Positions 1 through 11,715 of a stretch of 12,821 bases of DNA are shown here, piece after piece. Source of the stretch: an uncultured Rivibacter sp. (GTDB taxonomy: Bacteria > Pseudomonadota > Gammaproteobacteria > Burkholderiales > Burkholderiaceae). The notes under the pieces are model-generated. The model saw nothing but the letters and a program-made list of their open reading frames with translations, ran no database searches and was not told the DNA's origin. Within the stretch, counting starts at the first letter, position 1. Each line of letters starts with the position of its first letter. The position numbers and the translations under genes are program-made. Location of the stretch: assembly GCA_946480925.1 (NCBI GenBank), contig CAMLLU010000108.1, forward strand, positions 1 through 12,821, written 5' to 3'.

Positions 1-36
1 TGCAGCCCAAGCCGTCAAGAACGCTGGTCGCGCCAT
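1..36 (-). CDS. possible 5' end of a leftward gene, cut by the window edge
   Basis: Read on the minus strand, an ATG at 36-34 is preceded by a perfect GGAGG (plus-strand positions 43-47) with a 6-nt spacer, and the frame stays open to the edge. Only twelve residues are visible (MARPAFLTAWAA), too few to identify a family. The ribosome-binding site and spacing are the only support. If real, this gene is divergent from the OLD-type nuclease gene. An overlapping minus-strand frame through the ATG three bases away is less well placed relative to the GGAGG. Confidence 0.35.
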   Translation of the reverse strand, partial: MARPAFLTAWAA

Positions 37-794
37 TCATATCCTCCACTGGTATCAAGCTCGTCCGGCAATTATTCGGCATTGATATCGGGCGAATGGC
101 TGGCGCTTGCTGATTTCCGCCGTCTTGAATGGTCGGTTCGGCGACGTGGTCAGCGAGTTCTGTGCTGTTGATCAGCCTACATGCGAGGGCTCAAGCAAAT
201 TCCGGAACCGGCCAGGAGCTGGCGCTCGATTCCAGCGAGCGAACTACAGCACAGCAGTGCAGCGGGTGCTGTCGGATGCAGTCAACCGTCGTACTCACGG
301 TCTCGCGCACATACCGGCCATTGCGGCACGTAGACGCCAGCAAGTTCAATGGCGTGTAGGTGCTGAACTGCTGACACACGCGAGACGCAGCCGCGTCCTC
401 CGTCGTCGGCAGGCTCCGTTCGTTATCCCAACGAACTTTCGCGAGCAATCCGTTGCTGCCCGTCACCGCATCAAGGACCGTTAGCTCAGTGAGGTACTGC
501 AACTTGGTCCGGCGAGTGGCGGCTCTGGAGCGTGGGCTGTGGCAATCGAACTCGTCTGGCACCAGCCTCGGTTCTCAGTCAGGCCAACGGCAGACATGCT
601 GCCGTCCACCCTGGACGCGATGGCGCGGCGCTGTCAACTCCAGAGTCCATTCTTATTCGCCGACGTTGGCCACCTGCGTAGACCCGACCCTGCCGCCTAC
701 CTTCCGAACGGGGTGTCTTGGGCGCTTTCCTGGGGCCGTCCCGGTGCCGGGCGGTCGCTATCATGGATAGAAGAAGCACACGGGGAGAGAGTCC
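37..794. other. about 760 bp without a convincing gene, upstream of the defence pair
   Basis: No frame here has the composition of the neighbouring genes. Open frames on both strands at about 107-562 are rich in Arg, Ser and Cys and lack recognisable motifs. The minus-strand frame from 562 down to base 1 is interrupted by a single stop (191-193), so a decayed gene is possible but unproven. Small inverted repeats are present, such as ACAGCAC/GTGCTGT at 246-252/266-272, but nothing resembles a tRNA, CRISPR array or known structured RNA. GC is moderate (60% at 241-300), like the defence genes and unlike dctA. The last 60 bp probably hold the promoter and ribosome-binding site of the next gene. 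Confidence 0.5.
740..790 (+). promoter_or_regulatory. putative promoter and ribosome-binding site of the OLD-type nuclease gene
   Basis: A good -10 match, TATCAT, lies at 759-764. No clear -35 is present at the expected distance. Instead a small dyad, CCCGG-TG-CCGGG, sits at 740-751, where a regulator could bind. A purine-rich Shine-Dalgarno stretch (GGGGAGAGA, 782-790) is followed by a 4-nt spacer and the ATG at 795, which supports that start. The promoter call is weak; the ribosome-binding site is convincing. Confidence 0.3.
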
Positions 795-2411
795 ATGAAG
801 TTTGCCGCAGCCGTGGGTGGAGACGGATCGCTGGCCGGCGCCGACATCTCGCACCTGTGCATCCGCAAGGTGGTGCTGTCGAACTTCAAAAAGTTCGAGA
901 CGCTGCAACTCGAGCTCCATTCCGACCTGAACATCTTTGCCGGCGATAACGAAGCGGGCAAGAGCACCGTTCTAACGGCGATTGACCTGACCCTGTCGGC
1001 AAGCCGCAGCAAGGTCGAGACCTTGGGCATAGAGGCGCTCATGCGAAAGGGCGCGGTGGAGGGTTTTCTCAGGGGTGAGAAGAAGCTCGCGAACCTGCCC
1101 ACGCTTTTCGTTGAGGTCTACCTGTCCGAAGTCTGCGACCCCGATCTCAAGGGCCGGTGCAATTCGCGGCACGACAACACGTTTGGTTTGCGGCTGACGT
1201 GCGAGCCGTCTGACGACTACGCGCCTGAGATCCAGGAAGTGCTCGCGGAGAAGGCCGACAACTTCCCGTTCGAGTTCTACGCCATCAAGTTTTCGACCTT
1301 CGCAGGTGCGCCCTATGGTGCGCACGCGAGGCCTGTACGTCACCTATTGATCGACGGCGCTCAGATCGACGCGGAGTACGCACAGCGCGAGTACACCCGA
1401 ACGCTGTATAGGGCACATGCCGCACCTCGCCAGCGTGGTAGTCACGAGAACAAGTACCGACAGTACAAGGACCTCTTTTCTGCCGAGCAACTGGCCGACC
1501 TCAACGCGAAGCTGGAACTGAAGTTCCAAGTGCGCAGTTCAGCCAAATCGAACCTAGAGTCCGACCTGCAAATCGCTGAGGGTGGGGTCCCGCTGGAAGC
1601 ACGCGGCCGCGGCCGCCAGAGCCTCATAAAAACAGAATTCGCACTGAGCAAAGGCACGAAGGCCTCGGAGTCAATCCAGATCCTGCTCATCGAAGAGCCA
1701 GAGAACCACTTAAGCCACGTGAACATGCGCCGCCTGCTCGACGGTCTGGCCAAGCCTGGTGGCAAGCAGCTCTTCGTTTCGACCCACAGCAGCCTAGTGT
1801 GCTCGCGGCTGGACCTGCGCAAGGTCATCATGATGGACGCCGCAGGAAACAAGGCGTCGCTGCGAGATCTGGATTCGGCCACTGCGGACTTCTTCTGCAA
1901 GGCGCCGGACAACAACGTTCTGGAGTTCGCGATGTCGCGCCGCGTCATCCTTGTGGAAGGGGACGCCGAGTTCATCCTTATCGCGGCCTTGTATGAGGCA
2001 TCGACTGGCTCGACCCTCGAAAAAGATGGCATCCACGTCATTGCCGTCGGTGGTACCAGCTTCAAGCGGTACTTGGCGCTGGCCAAGATCCTGGATGTAC
2101 GCACGGCCGTGGTCCGCGACAACGATGGCGACTACCAGAAGCACTGTGTTGACAACTATGCCGACCTGCTTAGTGCCAACACCCAGGTTTTCGCCGACCA
2201 GGACAACGCCCGCTCGACGTTCGAGATCTGCCTGTACAACGACAACAAGGCCGCCTGCGATGAGCTGTTCGGCAATCGTCGCAAGCTCTCGCCGCTCGAA
2301 TGGATGCTGGACAACAAGGCTGAGGCCGCGCTCGCACTGCTGGAGAAACACAAGACCGGCTTGAAGGTCCCCACCTACCTCAGCGACGCGATGGCATGGG
2401 CAAGACAGTAG
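795..2411 (+). CDS. OLD-family ATPase/TOPRIM endonuclease, GajA-like (class 2 OLD)
   Basis: This 538-residue protein joins an ABC/SMC-type ATPase to a C-terminal TOPRIM nuclease, the architecture of overcoming-lysogenization-defect (OLD) nucleases, including GajA of the Gabija anti-phage system. Visible motifs are Walker A GDNEAGKST (50-58), a signature-like GRGRQSL (271-277), Walker B ILLIEEPE (296-303) and an H-loop STHSS (329-333). TOPRIM has the acidic strand VILVEGD (384-390, Glu388) and the DNDGD cluster (442-446), so both active sites look intact. GajA itself is slightly longer, about 580 residues. Its stop overlaps the helicase gene by 16 bp, implying translational coupling, and an adjacent helicase defines class 2 OLD. 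The expected role is cytosolic: nucleotide-gated DNA cleavage during phage infection. Domain assignment is firm; the defence role is inferred from family and context. GC is about 57%, well below dctA. Confidence 0.9.
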   Translation: MKFAAAVGGDGSLAGADISHLCIRKVVLSNFKKFETLQLELHSDLNIFAGDNEAGKSTVLTAIDLTLSASRSKVETLGIEALMRKGAVEGFLRGEKKLANLPTLFVEVYLSEVCDPDLKGRCNSRHDNTFGLRLTCEPSDDYAPEIQEVLAEKADNFPFEFYAIKFSTFAGAPYGAHARPVRHLLIDGAQIDAEYAQREYTRTLYRAHAAPRQRGSHENKYRQYKDLFSAEQLADLNAKLELKFQVRSSAKSNLESDLQIAEGGVPLEARGRGRQSLIKTEFALSKGTKASESIQILLIEEPENHLSHVNMRRLLDGLAKPGGKQLFVSTHSSLVCSRLDLRKVIMMDAAGNKASLRDLDSATADFFCKAPDNNVLEFAMSRRVILVEGDAEFILIAALYEASTGSTLEKDGIHVIAVGGTSFKRYLALAKILDVRTAVVRDNDGDYQKHCVDNYADLLSANTQVFADQDNARSTFEICLYNDNKAACDELFGNRRKLSPLEWMLDNKAEAALALLEKHKTGLKVPTYLSDAMAWARQ

Positions 2412-3427
2412 TTTTTGCCGTTGCCGGCTCCGGCAAGACTACGCGAATCGTCGAAGAGCTCGGCGCAGGCCGTCGTTGCTTGGTGTTCACCTACACCGAG
2501 GAAAACGCCCGGACCTTGTGCAGGAAGATCACCCTGCGCTACGGCGCCATGCCTCCGACAGTCAAGGTGATGACGTATTTCACCTTCCTGCACACCTTCT
2601 GTTTCCGGCCCATCATGGGCTTCAACATGCGAAACCGTGGACTCGGTTTCTCCGACTTGCCGCATCGCGACCGGTTCAAGCAGACAGATGACCGCTACTA
2701 CCTGGACAGCAGCGGCCGGCTGTATCACAGCCGCTTGGCCAAACTGCTGATCGAACGTAACTTGGTCAGCGACGTGATCGAGCGCATCGACCAGTTCTTC
2801 GAGCTTGTTTGCGTGGACGAAGTGCAGGACTTCGGCGGGAACGACTTCAACTTCCTACGCAAATTGGCCGGCGCGCAAGCGGACCTGCTGCTGGTGGGCG
2901 ACTTCAGGCAGCACACCTACGACACGAGCCGTGACCACAGCGTCAACCGCAACCTGCATGACAACTTCAAGGCATATGCCAAGCGCTTTGATGAGGTTGG
3001 TATCAAGGTCGATACGGAATCGCTCTCTCTGAGTCGCCGCTGCAGCCCGGCCGTGTGCGCCTTCATCTCCGAGCGGCTGGGTATCCCCATCGGAACGACA
3101 TCCGATCGCCAAGCATCCGTCATTGAGGTCGAGTCCCAGGACGAAGCCGATACCCTTTGGCGGCGCCGGGATGTCGTGAAGCTGTTCTATCAGGAGCACG
3201 CGCTCTACGGATGCCATTCGCAGAACTGGGGTGCATCCAAGGGCGAGGACCATCACGACGAAGTGTGCGTGGTCCTCAACGCAAACACACTCAAGCTCCA
3301 TCATGGAGGGAAGCTGGGAAATCTGCCGCCGGCTACGCTCAACAAGCTCTATGTGGCCCTATCGCGCTCGCGCGGCAACGTCTATCTGGCCTCGCACGCC
3401 TACCTGGATCGCTACAAGTCCAAGTAG
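2396..3427 (+). CDS. compact UvrD/PcrA-like superfamily 1 helicase, GajB-like partner
   Basis: This 343-residue protein carries the superfamily 1 motifs in order: Walker A GSGKTT (11-16), motif II VDEVQD (140-145), motif III LLVGDFRQHTY (165-175), a motif IV-like SLSRRCSP (211-218), motif V SKGEDHHDEV (281-290) and motif VI LYVALSRSRG (318-327). The Walker A begins almost at the N terminus, so no Q motif is present, and the protein is far shorter than canonical GajB (about 494 residues). The 1B and 2B insertions must be minimal or absent. The start overlaps the nuclease gene by 16 bp in another frame, indicating one operon and a functional pair. By analogy with Gabija it would sense or process DNA ends and activate the nuclease; whether it unwinds DNA is uncertain. 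Confidence 0.85.
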   Translation: MGKTVVFAVAGSGKTTRIVEELGAGRRCLVFTYTEENARTLCRKITLRYGAMPPTVKVMTYFTFLHTFCFRPIMGFNMRNRGLGFSDLPHRDRFKQTDDRYYLDSSGRLYHSRLAKLLIERNLVSDVIERIDQFFELVCVDEVQDFGGNDFNFLRKLAGAQADLLLVGDFRQHTYDTSRDHSVNRNLHDNFKAYAKRFDEVGIKVDTESLSLSRRCSPAVCAFISERLGIPIGTTSDRQASVIEVESQDEADTLWRRRDVVKLFYQEHALYGCHSQNWGASKGEDHHDEVCVVLNANTLKLHHGGKLGNLPPATLNKLYVALSRSRGNVYLASHAYLDRYKSK

Positions 3428-3551
3428 GTTGGGCTGGAGCACATGTTGCAGCACCGGCTCAACTTGGCCGACTAAGGCGGAAGAACTGCTGAACAGCACG
3501 AAGCTGCGGCTCTTCGTGGGGTATCGATAGCCGACTTCCGTACGGCGCAGC
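3428..3551. repeat. convergent intergenic region with an 8-bp inverted repeat
   Basis: The 124 bp between the two converging stop codons hold a perfect inverted repeat, AAGCTGCG at 3501-3508 and CGCAGCTT at 3546-3553. The second arm just enters the final codons of the HEPN gene. A smaller dyad, TGCTG-AA-CAGCA, lies at 3487-3498. The 37-nt loop and lack of a T-run make an intrinsic terminator doubtful, though the position would suit transcription ending from both sides. Confidence 0.3.
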
Positions 3552-4382
3552 TTACGGCGCCAAGTCATCCAGCACGGGCAACTGGTTCCTCTCAATACAC
3601 GCGCGCACCAGTCGTCCCAGGAGCGCTACGGATTCGTTCACGCTGTCACGCGGCTCGCCCTTCATCCTTGCTCCATGCACTGCCTTGGATCGAATGCCAT
3701 ACAGGCGCTTCACGGCGTTGAAAGTCTCGCGCTGCTGATCCAAATTCTCTGGGAAAAGAAACTTTGCCGCGTACAAGCTAACGCGGAATGTGATTTCCGA
3801 ATCAACGCCGAACAGGCCCTCAATTCCTGCCCATAAGAGGGCTAGTTGAGCTCGGGGCAGAGTGTGCCAGTGATATGTAGCGAGGCAGTGCACCGCGTTC
3901 TGAAAACGGTGTTCATCTAGAAGCTCTTGCGCACATCCAAAGTAAGTTTCGAGCCAGCAGCAGTCGTCCTCCTTCAGGGCTAGGCCTTCACCCTCAGGTG
4001 GTTCAAAGACGCGGTAGTGAATGATGTTCAACCGACTTGATTCGGTGAACCGCTCTAGCGCGCACGACGACTGCAGGCCACAGTTGACTGGGACCGTGTA
4101 GATGGCGCTCAGCAAGAGCACGTCCCACAGCGCATTCCATGCGCGAGTGGCGACGTCGCTGCTACCGCGACCGGAGACCCGTAGCTGGCACTGAACCCAC
4201 GGCAGCAGTAGCAACGCAAACTGTTGGTCCAATAAGTCCAGTTTCGACAAGAACGGGCGCGGGCCTACACCATCGTCGACCGGCAATAGTTCAATGCCTT
4301 GAACCAGCCTCACAGGTCGAGGTATCGTCACTCCGCTGATGAGCAAATACGTTGACCTTCCCCCACCCATGACGCGCGGCAT
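3552..4382 (-). CDS. HEPN-domain protein (ApeA-like HEPN), putative RNase or defence accessory
   Basis: This 276-residue protein is recognised by its C-terminal half. A helical stretch with AGIEGLFG (185-192) leads into LYGIRSKAVHG (227-237), which contains R231-x4-H236. That is the R-x4-6-H signature of HEPN nucleases, and the surrounding pattern resembles the ApeA-like HEPN family. HEPN proteins commonly cleave RNA as toxins or abortive-infection effectors. The N-terminal 150 residues are not recognised and might sense a trigger or bind a partner. The start is supported by AAAGG with an 8-nt spacer on the minus strand (about 4391-4395). The gene is convergent to the OLD-helicase pair, so it is not in the same operon, but it shares that block's low GC (53% at 3781-3840). 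No antitoxin is evident next to it. The HEPN call is fairly sure; RNase activity is inferred. Confidence 0.7.
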   Translation of the reverse strand: MPRVMGGGRSTYLLISGVTIPRPVRLVQGIELLPVDDGVGPRPFLSKLDLLDQQFALLLLPWVQCQLRVSGRGSSDVATRAWNALWDVLLLSAIYTVPVNCGLQSSCALERFTESSRLNIIHYRVFEPPEGEGLALKEDDCCWLETYFGCAQELLDEHRFQNAVHCLATYHWHTLPRAQLALLWAGIEGLFGVDSEITFRVSLYAAKFLFPENLDQQRETFNAVKRLYGIRSKAVHGARMKGEPRDSVNESVALLGRLVRACIERNQLPVLDDLAP

Positions 4383-4591
4383 CGTGCGGACCTTTGGACG
4401 ATGAACTGAACGATGAGCGTAACAGCCCCCATCGGTCCTTTCTTCGGGCGTCGGGAGTGAGTCGGAGTTCCAGTTTGTTGCCTTCGCATATGGCCGTTGG
4501 GCGGTCTTAAATGGTGCGTCGGCTGATGAACGTCAAGTTCGGAGGTGGGCCGGTCTGTCGTTCCCACAAACTCTGACTGACCGGTTTCGTT

Positions 4592-4612
4592 GGCCGCCGC
4601 CACGCGGCGGCC
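4592..4612. repeat. perfect 9-bp stem with 3-nt loop
   Basis: GGCCGCCGC and GCGGCGGCC flank the loop CAC. No T-run follows on either strand (the next bases are TAGATCGACC to the right), so it lacks the second half of an intrinsic terminator. It lies upstream of the HEPN gene and of dctA, so it could insulate the two transcription units, act as a cruciform-type site, or be a relic. The structure is certain; a function is not. Confidence 0.5.
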
Positions 4613-4695
4613 TAGATCGACCGACCGCCCCCAGCCTCCTGCTGCAGTTCGCCACCGCGAGCCGCACGGCAGCACTGGGTCGAACGGAGATGTTG

Positions 4696-4812
4696 ATGTG
4701 CGCCGTTCGGCACCCCCGTGCCTCGGCGATCCCGTCGCCGAAATTCCCCGATCAGTTCGAATCGTTGGATGACCTCGCGTTGCCGAAACATGCAGGTTCA
4801 GCGAAGCAATGA
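4696..4812 (+). CDS. possible small 38-residue ORF of unknown function
   Basis: A GGAG at 4686-4689 precedes the ATG at 4696 with a 6-nt spacer, and the frame closes at TGA 4810-4812. The product starts MCAVRHPRAS and ends HAGSAKQ. It has no motif, signal peptide or membrane segment. It may be a fragment of a decayed gene or chance, since 38 codons are not unusual at this GC. It lies just upstream of the dctA promoter region. Confidence 0.15.
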   Translation: MCAVRHPRASAIPSPKFPDQFESLDDLALPKHAGSAKQ

Positions 4813-4887
4813 CACGCGCTGCACGCCGGCGCGCTTTTCAGTTTTGATCCAGCCGCAAAGATCCCGCGGGCAAACCCCCATGGGCCG

Positions 4888-4922
4888 TTGGAAACGCTTG
4901 CCTACATTGCTTGTATGCAAGC
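4888..4922 (+). promoter_or_regulatory. putative dctA promoter with FadR-like operator
   Basis: TTGGAA (4888-4893) and TTGTAT (4911-4916), separated by 17 bp, could be -35 and -10 elements, although the -10 is poor. Over the -10 lies the near-palindrome CTTGTATGCAAG (4910-4921), symmetric at five of six base pairs and flanked by a further G/C pair. GntR/FCD regulators often bind sites of the type TTGTATACAA, and such a regulator is encoded just after dctA. Binding here would repress dctA. The palindrome is seen directly; its reader is inferred. Confidence 0.4.
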
Positions 4923-4983
4923 TTGTGGGCAAACTGCGCCCCCGAGCTGCTTCCTCCGCCAGCCGTAGTTTTGGAGAGCACAC

Positions 4984-6318
4984 ATGCCTCGCATTTTGCG
5001 TTCCCTGTTTGGCCAGGTGCTCCTGGCCCTCGTCGCCGGCGTGATCGTCGGCTTCTTGTGGCCCGAGGCGGCCACGAAGTTGAAGCCGCTGGGTGACGGC
5101 TTCATCAAGCTCATCAAGATGATCATTCCGCTCATCGTGTTCTGCGTGGTGGTGCACGGCATCGCCAGCGCGGGCGACCTGAAGCGGGTGGGGCGCGTGG
5201 GCGTCAAGGCCATCGTCTACTTCGAGGTGGTCACCACCATCGCGCTGGGGCTGGGGTTGGTGCTGGCCTTCATGTTCGAGCCCGGCGTGGGCATGAACGT
5301 GGACCCGAAGGCGCTGGACGCCGCGGCCATGGGTACCTACGCCGAAAACGCCAGCAAGCTCACCGGCGGCGGCACGGTGGACTTCCTGCTGAAGCTCATC
5401 CCCACCACGGTGGTCAACGCCTTCGCCACCGGCGACGTGCTGCAGGTGCTGCTGTTCTCGGTGCTGTTCGGCTGCGCGCTGGCCATGCTGGGCGAGCGCG
5501 GCGCGCCGGTGGCCACCTTCATCGACACGCTGTCGCACGTGCTGTTCAAGGTGATGGGCATCATCATCAAGCTGGCGCCGCTGGGCGTGCTGGGCGCCAT
5601 CGCCTTCACGGTGGGCAAGTACGGCATCGGCTCGCTCAAGCAGCTGGGCGCGCTGGTGGTGCTGTTCTATGCCTCGGTGATCTTCTTCGTGTTCGTGGTG
5701 CTGGGCACGATCATGCGGCTGTGCGGCCTGAGCCTCTTCAAGCTGCTGAAGTACCTGCGTGAAGAGCTCGCCATCGTGCTGGCCACCACGTCGTCCGACA
5801 GCGTGCTGCCGCAGGTCATGGCCAAGCTCAAGCGCCTGGGCATCCGCGACTCGACGGTCGGCCTCGTCATCCCCACCGGCTACTCGTTCAACCTCGACGC
5901 GTTCTCGATCTACATCACGCTCGCCGCCGTGTTCATCGCGCAGGCCACCAACACGCCGATCTCGATGACGGACCTGCTCACCATCCTGGCGATCTCGCTG
6001 GTCACGTCGAAGGGGGCGCACGGCGTGCCGGGCTCGGCCATCGTGGTGCTGGCCGCCACCTTGCACGCCATCCCGGCCATCCCGGCGATCGGCCTGGTGC
6101 TCGTGCTGTCGGTGGACTGGTTCATGGGCATCGCACGGGCTCTGGGCAACCTGGTCGGCAACTGCGTGGCCACCGTGGCCGTGGCGCGTTGGGAGGGCGA
6201 CATCGACATGGCCAAGGCCCGCGCCACGCTCAATGGCGAGCCGCATGAGGTGGTCGATATCGAAGAAGACGAACCACAGGCTGCAGCCGTGCAGCCTGCA
6301 ACCGCACCTGTGCGTTAA
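4984..6318 (+). CDS. dctA: C4-dicarboxylate:cation symporter DctA
   Basis: A 444-residue inner-membrane carrier of the dicarboxylate/amino acid:cation symporter family (GltPh fold), expected to import succinate, fumarate or malate with cations. Hydrophobic segments fill residues 7-405. The family signatures are present: the HP1 serine-rich tip ATTSSDSVLP (267-276), the TM7 motif PTGYSFNLDA (297-306), the HP2 tip SKGAHGVPGS (342-351) and the TM8 residues Asp378, Arg385 and Asn389. Several positions differ from textbook DctA: NLDAF instead of NLDGT, VPG instead of VTG in HP2, and DWFMGIARALGN instead of the DRFMSE type, so substrate preference may be shifted. The C terminus is a charged, Ala/Pro-rich tail of about 35 residues. 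The start is supported by GGAGAG (4973-4978) with a 5-nt spacer. It probably forms a transcription unit with the following regulator. Confidence 0.92.
   Translation: MPRILRSLFGQVLLALVAGVIVGFLWPEAATKLKPLGDGFIKLIKMIIPLIVFCVVVHGIASAGDLKRVGRVGVKAIVYFEVVTTIALGLGLVLAFMFEPGVGMNVDPKALDAAAMGTYAENASKLTGGGTVDFLLKLIPTTVVNAFATGDVLQVLLFSVLFGCALAMLGERGAPVATFIDTLSHVLFKVMGIIIKLAPLGVLGAIAFTVGKYGIGSLKQLGALVVLFYASVIFFVFVVLGTIMRLCGLSLFKLLKYLREELAIVLATTSSDSVLPQVMAKLKRLGIRDSTVGLVIPTGYSFNLDAFSIYITLAAVFIAQATNTPISMTDLLTILAISLVTSKGAHGVPGSAIVVLAATLHAIPAIPAIGLVLVLSVDWFMGIARALGNLVGNCVATVAVARWEGDIDMAKARATLNGEPHEVVDIEEDEPQAAAVQPATAPVR
6277..6298. repeat. 9-bp hairpin inside the 3' end of dctA
   Basis: CAGGCTGCA and TGCAGCCTG form a perfect stem around the loop GCCG, within codons for the Ala/Pro-rich tail and 20 bp before the dctA stop codon ends. 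No T-run follows, so it is not a standard terminator. It could slow transcription or protect the dctA part of a dctA-regulator message. Confidence 0.4.
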
Positions 6319-9165: not shown

Positions 9166-9354
9166 GACCGCCAATGTAGAGCGGGCACGACCTTGCATTG
9201 ATGCGCTCTGGCGCAGGTCTGCCTTGACCGACCTCGCGTCGGGTTGCATGCATGTCCGACTGCGCTTCCCGGCGATTTCCTTCGCGGGAGCATTCGTGCG
9301 CGGCGAGGGCCTGCCCGATCATCCGCGCCCCAGATCCTTACGTCGAGGAGTGTC

Positions 9355-11715
9355 ATGCGACCAGTTGGCGAGGGCAGTACGCATCGTTTCCCCGCTCCTT
9401 CCAGCAAGGCTTCGTCCAGCTCGTCCGGGCCGGCTTCCTTGCCGCAGCTGGCCAGCGCGGAATCCGCAGCCGCCGAGGTACCGTCGCCCCGCGCGATGCA
9501 GCACCGAGAAGAGGGCGCGCCGGGGCCACGTAACAGGCTGCCTGTCCTGGCGCTCGCGAAGGGCACGGACAGCGTAGGGCCCTCCGGCGCTGCAGGCGTG
9601 CAGGCAGCATCGGCGAGCCTGCCCACGTCCGCCATCCGGCCCGCCTCCGCGGTGGCCGGGGCGTCCTCCACGGGGCGGACGACCATCGACGCCCCGCTGG
9701 CGGCCGCGCTGCAATTGCGCCACGCCGACATCGGTGTCGTTCGAGGCTTGGCAGACGAGGTGGGCGCCCTCGAGGCTGCGCTCGCTGCGTTGAAGCAGCC
9801 GCCTGCGCAACCCGTGGCTGAAGCCGAGATGACGAAGGCCGATCGAGAAAAGGCGATCCGCCGCCTGCAGGCCAGCCTGGAGCGCACGCAGTCCCAGTGC
9901 GCCGAACTCGGCGTGCAATGCGAGCGCGCGCGGGAGGTGGTGGAAAGACTGGACGCTGTCCTTCAACAGAAGACGGCACTGCTGGAGCAACAGCACCGGG
10001 AACTCGAAGACAGTGGACGCTCCACCGCCGTTCCTGCACGGGCCGAGACAGCCTCGCGCGGGAGGCCGGCAGACGCGCGAGCGGAAGCGGCCGCGCGCGT
10101 CGACACGCTGACCCGGCAATTGAACGAAACGAGGGTGAGCCGCAAGAAGGCCGCGCAGGAGGCCGTGGCCGTCGCGGGACGCGACCGGCTGAGGGAGCTG
10201 GGAGCTGGAACGTTCACGAACTTGGTTGCCAACTCCATCGGAGCCCTGATGCCCGGAGGCGTCAGACCGGAGCTGATGGAGATCATCACGCAGTGGCTGC
10301 AGCCCGCTGCCCGCCGGTCGGAACGTTCCCGCGTGAACCTGGGGCAAACCGTCCAGTCGGCGCAGAACGCGGCATTCGAGCACCTCGCGCGAAGCGCCGC
10401 AGACCCAGACGGCAACGCCGCGGAAGCGCTGCAGGTCTTCCTGGCGATGACTGCGCGCCACGACTTGAAATGGCTGCACACGGCCATGGAGCAGAAGTTG
10501 GTGACCTACCTGGAGGGATGTCTCATCAGGGCCGATGGTGCCCACCAACTCAACAAGTCGCATGGCCAGGCCGAGGCTTCTTTCCAGGCCCTCGAACGGT
10601 CTCCGAGGGAGAAGATCGTCCAGGGCATGCTCGCCACGATCGAGGGCACGGTCGACAAACTCCGCAGCGGCGGACCCAACGCCCTGAAGCTCGACGGCCA
10701 GATACTGAACCCACGGCAGGTTTCGCGCGCGCTCAAGCAATGCGAGAGCCTGGCTGTTGCGTTCAAGGCCCACCGGCAAGACTTCCTGGTCACCTTGGAA
10801 AGAGTGGGGAACACATTCTTGAAGGTGCTGAAGGATGACGACGTCGAAAAGATGGGCCGTTTGGTCGCACCCAAACTGGATGCCTACTACAAGCAACGGA
10901 CCGCCGAATTGAGCGCCGAGCTCGGGCAGCAGCGGAAGGTCATGCAGCATGGGGCGCCGTCGGCGGCCGGCACGGTAGCGCCCGCCATCACCGCAGGCGC
11001 ATCCAGCGGAACCGATGCCGAGCACAGCGAGATCCGGATCAAGCGGCTGCAGGGCGACGTCCTGCGGTACACGGAGCAGCATCGTCGCGAGTTCGAGCAA
11101 TACACCGAGCTGAGCGCGCGTCACATCCGTGCCGGTGAGGAGGCCAACGCCCTTGCGAGGGAGATGCAAGTGCACCAGGACGCCTTGCAGGCACGGCAGC
11201 AGGAACGGCGCGATGCTCTCCGGCAACGCAGCTCGCAGGATGCCGAAGCAGGCCGGATCGAGCAGGAGCTGACCGCGCTATGGGAGCGTGCCCGGCACGA
11301 ACCCGCGCTCGCACGGCTCGTTTCGCCCGCTGCGCTCGACAGGGCCGATCGTGTGCACGTCGGCCAGTCGATCGAGCAGATGCGCTCCCGCATGGACAGC
11401 GTCATTCGCACAGGCACCTACAGCTCTCGATCCAGTTTGCTGCGTGTCGTCGCCGACGTGGCGAATCACGAACTCGGCAAGCGCGAGCCAGCCCTGCTGA
11501 CGCAAACGCGCGAAGACTTCGAGCGGATCATGGCCGACGACCCGGCCCGCAGCCGCGGGCTCTGCAACCACGGCCGCACCGTGGGCCATGGTGTGCGGCA
11601 GAGCGCGCGAGGGCTGGATGAAGCGCGCACCGGAACGACCCAGTACGACCTGGGGTGGGTCGCAGGCCAGGGCCCGCGCATCACGCACATCCACCCCTGG
11701 ATTTCGCCATATTGA
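9355..11715 (+). CDS. large coiled-coil protein of unknown function, effector-like N terminus
   Basis: I do not recognise this 786-residue protein. The start at 9355 is supported by GAGGAG at 9345-9350 with a 4-nt spacer; an in-frame ATG at 9244 would lack such a site. Residues 1-110 are Ser/Pro/Ala-rich and probably disordered, with no Sec signal and no membrane segment. Helical, heptad-like, Gln/Glu/Arg-rich stretches occupy about 125-272 and 556-650, separated by a predicted all-helical globular region (about 285-525) and an Ala/Gly/Ser linker (531-555). The last 60 residues are Gly/Arg/His-rich. A disordered Ser-rich N terminus on a long helical body recalls type III secretion effectors of plant-associated beta- and gammaproteobacteria. 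A cytoplasmic structural or polar protein is equally possible. No chaperone or secretion gene is adjacent. It sits between LysR and gcl and is read toward gcl, followed by two hairpins. Confidence 0.75.
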   Translation: MRPVGEGSTHRFPAPSSKASSSSSGPASLPQLASAESAAAEVPSPRAMQHREEGAPGPRNRLPVLALAKGTDSVGPSGAAGVQAASASLPTSAIRPASAVAGASSTGRTTIDAPLAAALQLRHADIGVVRGLADEVGALEAALAALKQPPAQPVAEAEMTKADREKAIRRLQASLERTQSQCAELGVQCERAREVVERLDAVLQQKTALLEQQHRELEDSGRSTAVPARAETASRGRPADARAEAAARVDTLTRQLNETRVSRKKAAQEAVAVAGRDRLRELGAGTFTNLVANSIGALMPGGVRPELMEIITQWLQPAARRSERSRVNLGQTVQSAQNAAFEHLARSAADPDGNAAEALQVFLAMTARHDLKWLHTAMEQKLVTYLEGCLIRADGAHQLNKSHGQAEASFQALERSPREKIVQGMLATIEGTVDKLRSGGPNALKLDGQILNPRQVSRALKQCESLAVAFKAHRQDFLVTLERVGNTFLKVLKDDDVEKMGRLVAPKLDAYYKQRTAELSAELGQQRKVMQHGAPSAAGTVAPAITAGASSGTDAEHSEIRIKRLQGDVLRYTEQHRREFEQYTELSARHIRAGEEANALAREMQVHQDALQARQQERRDALRQRSSQDAEAGRIEQELTALWERARHEPALARLVSPAALDRADRVHVGQSIEQMRSRMDSVIRTGTYSSRSSLLRVVADVANHELGKREPALLTQTREDFERIMADDPARSRGLCNHGRTVGHGVRQSARGLDEARTGTTQYDLGWVAGQGPRITHIHPWISPY

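What the first reader, a model, noticed from the sequence alone, without database searches (positions are those of the whole stretch)
795..3427. Gabija-like class 2 OLD nuclease plus compact helicase
An ATPase-TOPRIM nuclease with both active sites apparently intact overlaps by 16 bp with a superfamily 1 helicase, the gene order of Gabija and class 2 OLD systems. The helicase is about 150 residues shorter than canonical GajB and the nuclease is also a little short. The pair may be a distinct compact lineage rather than textbook Gabija. The family link is established knowledge; the separate-lineage idea is inference.
Basis: partly seen in the sequence, partly recalled or inferred. Interest (0 to 1): 0.7.

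Follow-up and report, generated by a model that had tools for sequence, protein, structure and literature searches.

The report
Compact two-gene Gabija-type phage-defence pair
Two overlapping bacterial genes encode a stripped-down relative of the Gabija anti-phage system, whose helicase lacks the subdomain that normally restrains such motors and whose nuclease lacks a segment found in the studied Gabija nucleases, and relatives of the same compact pair occur in many bacteria and plasmids.

Summary
In detail: an intact ATPase-TOPRIM nuclease gene (795-2411, 538 aa) overlaps by 16 bp an intact superfamily 1 helicase gene (2396-3427, 343 aa). Both match PADLOC GajA/GajB models over nearly their whole length. 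The separate-lineage inference also holds: in trees of both proteins the compact members form one group (100/100) apart from Bacillus cereus-type Gabija, Xanthomonas/Burkholderia-type class 2 OLD and three other groups of pairs sampled. The size difference has a precise cause. The helicase has 66-78 residues between motifs IV and V against 202-275 in ten ordinary GajB proteins, so subdomain 2B is absent; the nuclease lacks most of the extra TOPRIM segment said to mark class 2 OLD proteins. Catalytic motifs are kept, relatives evolve under purifying selection, and the partners co-vary (r = 0.90). PADLOC already holds short models that hit this pair best, so the lineage is catalogued; my searches of an open-access library showed no description of a 2B-less GajB. 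I call it a new variant of a known kind. Function is inferred, not shown: DNA cleavage against phages with a helicase core lacking the usual self-inhibition. One or two origins relative to ordinary Gabija is unresolved.

The parts
782..789 (+). Shine-Dalgarno-like GGGGAGAG, ending 5 nt before the gajA start
   Evidence: sequence; role inferred
795..2411 (+). compact GajA-like OLD nuclease gene, 538 aa (ABC-type ATPase + TOPRIM)
   Evidence: residues 1-18 have pLDDT under 50, and Walker A lies about 15-20 residues nearer the start in most of the relatives compared, so the true start may be later
942..965 (+). Walker A GDNEAGKS (residues 50-57)
1692..1709 (+). Walker B EEPENH (residues 300-305)
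1956..1958 (+). TOPRIM catalytic Glu388
   Evidence: aligned with the invariant TOPRIM glutamate of ordinary GajA
2118..2126 (+). TOPRIM Asp442-Asn-Asp444
   Evidence: aligned with DxD of ordinary GajA
2217..2225 (+). T475-F-E477, like the metal-site pair T506/E508 of B. pseudomallei OLD
   Evidence: equivalence inferred
2316..2318 (+). Lys508, candidate equivalent of GajA K541
   Evidence: invariant in 72 rows; equivalence inferred
2396..2411 (+). 16-bp gene overlap; also 16 bp in 8 of the 13 other compact loci with both genes
2396..3427 (+). compact GajB-like superfamily 1A helicase gene, 343 aa, no 2B subdomain
2426..2440 (+). helicase motif I GSGKT (11-15)
2816..2830 (+). helicase motif II DEVQD (141-145)
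2897..2911 (+). helicase motif III GDFRQ (168-172)
3038..3040 (+). motif IV Arg215
3041..3238 (+). the 66 residues (216-281) between motif IV Arg215 and motif V Lys282, where ordinary GajB carries 2B in 202-275 residues
3236..3244 (+). motif V SKG (281-283)
3353..3373 (+). motif VI VALSRSR (320-326)

Best explanation
A compact, separate lineage of Gabija-type (OLD nuclease + UvrD-like helicase) anti-phage pairs. Shown here: both catalytic machineries intact, two overlapping genes, partners that co-vary, absence of helicase subdomain 2B and of most of the extra TOPRIM segment. Inferred: the nuclease forms an oligomer through its ATPase heads and dimerisation helices; the helicase docks on it with 1A/1B (the part that binds GajA in B. 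cereus) and moves on, or hydrolyses ATP at, phage DNA ends or single strands not covered by RecBCD; this engages the ATPase heads and releases two-metal TOPRIM cleavage of the DNA, stopping phage replication. Because 2B, the part that inhibits Rep/UvrD monomers, is missing, the helicase core would act without 2B-driven gating, and restraint must come from the nuclease complex or from nucleotide levels.
Against: I know of no experiment on a compact member. B. cereus GajB showed no unwinding even with GajA (PMC10681800 passages), so a helicase without 2B need not be an active unwindase. Foldseek, unlike VIA-align, ranks a GajA entry first for the nuclease (4.3e-17) and TsOLD second (1.7e-16), so the class-1-like fold is not firm. 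The five Vibrio/Photobacterium/Colwellia loci show no defence genes among ORFs seen by eye. Whether compact and ordinary pairs share one ancestral pairing is unresolved (p-AU 0.189). Whether the GajA-GajB contact surface is kept was not tested.
Confidence: 0.72

Rival explanations
1. It is textbook Gabija, differing only by ordinary length variation.
For: PADLOC names both proteins GajA/GajB; gene order and overlap as in ordinary pairs, of which 7 of 10 also overlap by 4-22 bp; Foldseek's first match of the nuclease is GajA.
Against: The motif IV-V interval does not overlap between 12 compact and 10 ordinary helicases, nor the TOPRIM tail between 15 compact and 9 ordinary nucleases, and both trees set the lineage apart. 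One genome (G005, Vibrio tetraodonis) carries both a compact and an ordinary pair.
Confidence: 0.1
2. An independent pairing: a class-1-like OLD nuclease joined a short superfamily 1 helicase separately from ordinary Gabija, so likeness to Gabija is convergent.
For: With five rows that I labelled class 1 OLD added, ordinary GajA groups with four of them rather than with compact GajA (93/88); the fifth falls on the compact side. Short TOPRIM tail and best VIA-align match to TsOLD.
Against: Holding all GajA together is not rejected (p-AU 0.189); compact GajA scores better with an ordinary GajA model (4e-35) than with Old (1.3e-23); compact and ordinary GajB are one side of a branch against UvrD, Rep and four other helicases with 91/98 support, short of firm.
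Confidence: 0.2
3. A decaying or non-defence (repair) pair kept by plasmids and chromosomes.
For: Partial relatives occur on Klebsiella plasmids (10 of 60 spread rows cover only query residues 22-247); the Rhodococcus copy has its nuclease in two annotated pieces and a changed motif I.
Against: Intact catalytic residues, dN/dS 0.07-0.20 among relatives, nuclease relatives covering at least 80% of the query in 1670 of 2446 plasmid records with a match, patchy presence (5 of 369 sampled gammaproteobacterial genomes, one of them the search's own centre) as expected for defence.
Confidence: 0.1

Closest known systems
Gabija of Bacillus cereus VD045 (GajA 578 aa, GajB 494 aa; PDB 8SM3, 8JQB)
   Same: ATPase-TOPRIM nuclease plus downstream SF1A helicase; same catalytic motifs; helicase parts 1A and 1B, which bind GajA there, are present
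   Different: no 2B (residues 306-416 of GajB), shorter TOPRIM tail, separate clade from its close relative L037; sequence match to GajA only 7.2e-10 and to GajB none at E <= 0.001
Class 2 OLD nucleases of Xanthomonas and Burkholderia pseudomallei (PDB 6NJV, 6NK8)
   Same: two-metal TOPRIM site (E, DxD, TxE, K) and adjacent helicase
   Different: their close relative L044 has partners of 589 and 609 aa with a long motif IV-V interval (235); Xcc matches our GajA only at 3.1e-4
PADLOC models PDLC00102/PDLC00098 (GajA, 532/534 positions) and PDLC00148/PDLC00140 (GajB, 369/365)
   Same: best hits of both proteins
   Different: they fit a sister subclade better: the Agrobacterium pair scores 1e-239 and 3.1e-157, the window pair 7.4e-105 and 3e-47
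Class 1 OLD (Thermus scotoductus, PDB 6P74)
   Different: class 1 stands alone (PMC10568477 passages); here a helicase gene overlaps
Rep/UvrD/PcrA helicases
   Same: 1A/2A core and SF1A motifs
   Different: 1B smaller and 2B absent

Membership tests
Gabija / class 2 OLD system | OLD nuclease with intact ABC-type ATPase and TOPRIM sites | tested here: met
Gabija / class 2 OLD system | UvrD/PcrA/Rep-like helicase gene directly adjacent in the same unit | tested here: met
   16-bp overlap
Gabija / class 2 OLD system | GajB with subdomains 1A, 1B, 2A and 2B | tested here: not met
   motif IV-V 66 residues against 202-275 in 10 ordinary GajB
Gabija / class 2 OLD system | helical TOPRIM insert of about 50 residues said to be conserved in class 2 (PMC10568477 passages) | tested here: not met
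   96 residues after DxD against 138-213 in 9 ordinary rows; a length test, no residue-level structure comparison; VIA-align and Foldseek disagree on whether class 1 or GajA is nearest
Gabija / class 2 OLD system | falls within clades of B. cereus GajAB or Xcc/Bp OLD, here stood for by L037 and L044 | tested here: not met
   separate side of a 100/100 branch for both proteins
Gabija / class 2 OLD system | recognised by PADLOC GajA and GajB models | tested here: met
   (model scores; PADLOC's own calling rules were not run)
Gabija / class 2 OLD system | 4:4 GajA-GajB complex, sequence-specific nicking, nucleotide control, phage protection | not testable with these tools
   needs bench work
Class 1 OLD | OLD nuclease encoded alone | tested here: not met
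   overlapping helicase gene, as in 13 other compact loci
Class 3 OLD (retron Eco8) | reverse transcriptase and retron RNA next to the nuclease | tested here: not met
   no reverse transcriptase among the 9 ORFs scanned; no Rfam match at gathering score

The most novel reading that the evidence does not exclude
The compact pairs are a separate OLD-helicase class, not a trimmed Gabija: a class-1-like OLD nuclease coupled to a naturally 2B-less, non-autoinhibited helicase core, arisen independently and spread by enterobacterial plasmids; its activation logic would differ from Gabija because the motor has no 2B switch and the nuclease alone must hold it in check.
Probability: 0.2. Interest if true: 0.7.

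Novelty: new variant of a known kind. Interest (0 to 1): 0.48.

Why it matters
What GajB does is an open question: the studied B. cereus protein binds GajA but did not unwind DNA, and its 2B subdomain sits in an intermediate position (PMC10681800 passages). A natural GajB without 2B makes the question directly testable: does the 1A-1B-2A core suffice for defence, and is it an active motor? Relatives are common (nuclease matches covering at least 80% of the query in 1670 plasmid records), so Gabija counts in plasmids may often refer to a system that differs in parts from the one studied structurally.

Tried and rejected
No whole genome is held for the window, so host and empty site were not settled; the best relatives for the right flank were 76-83% at single genes in another order, and no fetched locus matched window 1-790 by blastn. 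The convergent HEPN-like gene was considered as a third component and not adopted: comparing contig lengths of the listed relatives (119 of 120 HEPN, 120 GajA, 119 of 120 GajB; one HEPN and one GajB length left out by slips, and neither of them recurs in the other lists by eye, apart from the omitted GajB length being shared with one GajA as expected), only the window's own contig is shared between HEPN and the pair; lists are capped, so a rare link is not excluded. PDLC00120 (458 positions) as an intermediate gave nothing in 229 genomes nor in the controls, so that search is uninformative. A second OLD-helicase pair in Colwellia (L115, 569 + 471 aa, PADLOC PDLC04168/PDLC04173) was considered as an intermediate; motif IV did not align, so its spacing says nothing. 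Regular-expression motif calls missed or misplaced motifs in many GajB rows, in L042/L011 GajA (not counted) and by a few residues in L029 GajA; for GajB I use the alignment-based counts. PADLOC also lists GajB models of 382 and 392 positions; there they match only the first part of longer helicases, so I take them as partial models. Promoter scan found none (0 against 0.9 expected) and terminator hits were at chance (6 against 4.6). No direct repeat, and no Rfam match, bears on the pair. Of the literature searches, searches returned little of use; one search was mostly unrelated papers.

Rows dropped: L005 (contig end), L007 and G006 (319- and 421-aa nuclease pieces; G006 gave no compact GajB match at E <= 1e-15), L003 and L006 (near-copies, left out of the trees), 115 of the 120 listed GajA and 119 of the 120 listed GajB proteins (left out of the trees; the window's own are in; the 72- and 71-row alignments used 69 and 68 of the listed ones), L039, L041 and L043 (fetched; near-copies or IS-disrupted, unused), the Rhodococcus nuclease (two annotated pieces, left unjoined; only its helicase was used), L042 and L011 GajA from the second OLD tree (flagged long branches). 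'Class 1 OLD' labels of L016, L018, L102, L112, L113 are mine, from the absence of a helicase ORF in small fetched loci. In the first mirror-tree run 4 of 34 pairs were shifted by the omitted length; one search is the corrected run. The G252 helicase match holds one TAG near its end; its ORF up to the stop was used.

Full report
What is there. ORF calling gives a 538-aa gene at 795-2411 and a 343-aa gene at 2396-3427, both on the + strand, overlapping by 16 bp. The first carries AAA_15 and OLD-like_TOPRIM, the second UvrD-helicase and Viral_helicase1 domains. PADLOC gives GajA at 7.4e-105 and GajB at 3e-47, over nearly the whole of each protein. The two best models for each are short: 532 and 534 positions for GajA, 369 and 365 for GajB; of the 23 GajB models among the 25 rows displayed (32 families in all), the other 21 have 458-647 positions. 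No NCBIfam model listed reaches its cut-off for either.

Relatives. The nuclease has 2346 and the helicase 3155 homologues at E <= 0.001 among the candidates scored. Of the best 120 of each list, 119 nucleases are 510-559 aa long and 117 helicases 320-369 aa. Nuclease relatives occur in 2446 plasmid records, 1670 of them with at least 80% of the query covered, mainly Klebsiella, Escherichia and Enterobacter, all below 60% identity; in 3 phage records, 2 with at least 80% covered; and in 7 loci of the genome-contig collection. Of 369 gammaproteobacterial genomes, 5 have the compact nuclease (E <= 1e-20) and 4 the compact helicase (E <= 1e-15), the same genomes except one with a 421-aa nuclease piece only; one of the five, G005, was the centre of the draw and known to have it.

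Anchors. To compare with studied systems I took ordinary pairs from plasmids and genomes. The Enterococcus pair L037 (585 + 521 aa) is of B. cereus type (PDB GajA 3e-30, GajB 9e-30). The Vibrio tetraodonis pair L044 (589 + 609 aa) is of Xanthomonas/Burkholderia class 2 OLD type (Xcc 3.8e-43, Bp 8e-42, run on the same gene in L010). That genome, G005, also has a compact pair. Annotated plasmid loci supplied eight further ordinary pairs, and L011 one more nuclease.

Separate lineage. Maximum-likelihood trees put 15 of 15 compact GajA rows on one side of a 100/100 branch from 11 ordinary rows (2 class-1-labelled rows lie on the ordinary side), and 12 of 12 compact GajB rows on one side of a 100/100 branch from 10 ordinary rows. 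The ordinary rows fall into five small groups, the B. cereus and Xcc types among them.

Still working genes. Active-site residues are invariant across 72 nuclease and 71 helicase rows. dN/dS between close compact relatives is 0.07-0.12 for the nuclease and 0.09-0.20 for the helicase, 4 comparisons each; 8 more distant comparisons, those with the window among them, were saturated. The overlap is 16 bp in 9 of 14 compact loci with both genes, the window included, and 4-26 bp in the rest.

Neighbourhood. Of these 14 loci, one lies next to Qat genes, one next to a methyltransferase and a restriction subunit S gene, one next to a full type I restriction set, and two next to vapBC. L048 has TIR-domain proteins within 7 kb. 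The Vibrio, Photobacterium and Colwellia loci showed no such genes among ORFs that I looked at by eye, without a family scan.

How it probably works. In B. cereus, GajA is a tetramer with GajB docked through 1A/1B on the GajA ATPase domains (PMC10781630, abstract and sections 4, 5, 24; PMC10822852 passages), and GajB residues 1-223 suffice for binding. So lacking 2B need not prevent assembly. A review of UvrD-family helicases says that deleting 2B activates the Rep monomer and that 2B is autoinhibitory (PMC13238157 passages). A Pseudomonas preprint proposes that Gabija attacks linear DNA not acted on by RecBCD (PMC12407980, abstract and passages). Put together: DNA-end or single-strand engagement by an ungated helicase core, transmitted to the OLD ATPase heads, leading to TOPRIM cleavage. 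Assembly, end sensing and ungated activity are inference. Against: B. cereus GajB did not unwind DNA with or without GajA (PMC10681800 passages). Another published model has the complex released by nucleotide depletion (PMC10822852 passages), which the compact pair may share.

Origin. With UvrD, Rep and four other helicases added, compact plus ordinary GajB are one side of a branch at 91/98, below the threshold for a firm claim. With class-1-labelled OLD rows added, ordinary GajA joins four of five of them rather than compact GajA at 93/88, but holding all GajA together is not rejected (p-AU 0.189). So one pairing or two remains open.

In print. Searches for Gabija with class 2 OLD, subtypes, plasmid defence, homologues, 2B subdomain, truncated/shorter forms, plating with conjugative plasmids, and Burkholderia class 2 OLD showed no description of a 2B-less GajB; I saw passages or sections of nine papers (one of them on UvrD-family helicases) and only listings of the rest. 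The two papers holding both 'Gabija' and '2B subdomain' concern the B. cereus protein. The library is open-access only. A natural Vibrio cholerae Gabija has a minor role against ICP1/ICP2 (PMC11559045 passages), but its lineage could not be checked.

Verdict. Observation and interpretation both hold, with a sharper statement of what makes the pair compact. It works like Gabija as far as sequence can tell, but two structural features of textbook Gabija were tested and not met, so I describe it as a compact Gabija-type lineage, a new variant of a known kind.

Noticed in passing
window 3552-4382 (-): Convergent 276-aa gene with an HEPN-type motif R231-S-K-A-V-H236-G; R, S, A, V, G identical in 119 of 119 and H in 118 of 119 aligned relatives; three listed relatives are named as HEPN proteins by a source, two of them Apea-like HEPN. 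Pfam gives nothing. Possible RNase; no steady link to the pair seen.
   Followed up: partly
window 9244-11715 (+): An 823-aa frame with coiled-coil-like matches only (best 0.0024) and no family above cut-off; start uncertain, a 635-aa frame lies on the other strand.
   Followed up: no
plasmid hits H86-H95: Ten Klebsiella plasmids of the 60 spread rows match only residues 22-247 of the nuclease at 45.6%, as if a truncated copy were carried widely.
   Followed up: no
L031 and L008, upstream of the pair: Edwardsiella and E. coli plasmids carry a vapBC-type toxin-antitoxin pair directly before the compact pair.
   Followed up: no
L115:1095-4229: Colwellia has a second OLD-helicase pair of yet another type, 569 + 471 aa, fitting PADLOC PDLC04168/PDLC04173, beside its compact pair elsewhere in the genome.
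   Followed up: partly
L030:3998-6685: Rhodococcus plasmid copy has the nuclease annotated in two overlapping pieces and GSRKT instead of GSGKT in helicase motif I, so it looks inactive.
   Followed up: partly
window 1-5000: No convincing gene upstream of the pair; GC is about 0.62-0.63 near 250-1000, 0.56-0.60 through about 1000-4500, then 0.61-0.71, as for an inserted island.
   Followed up: no
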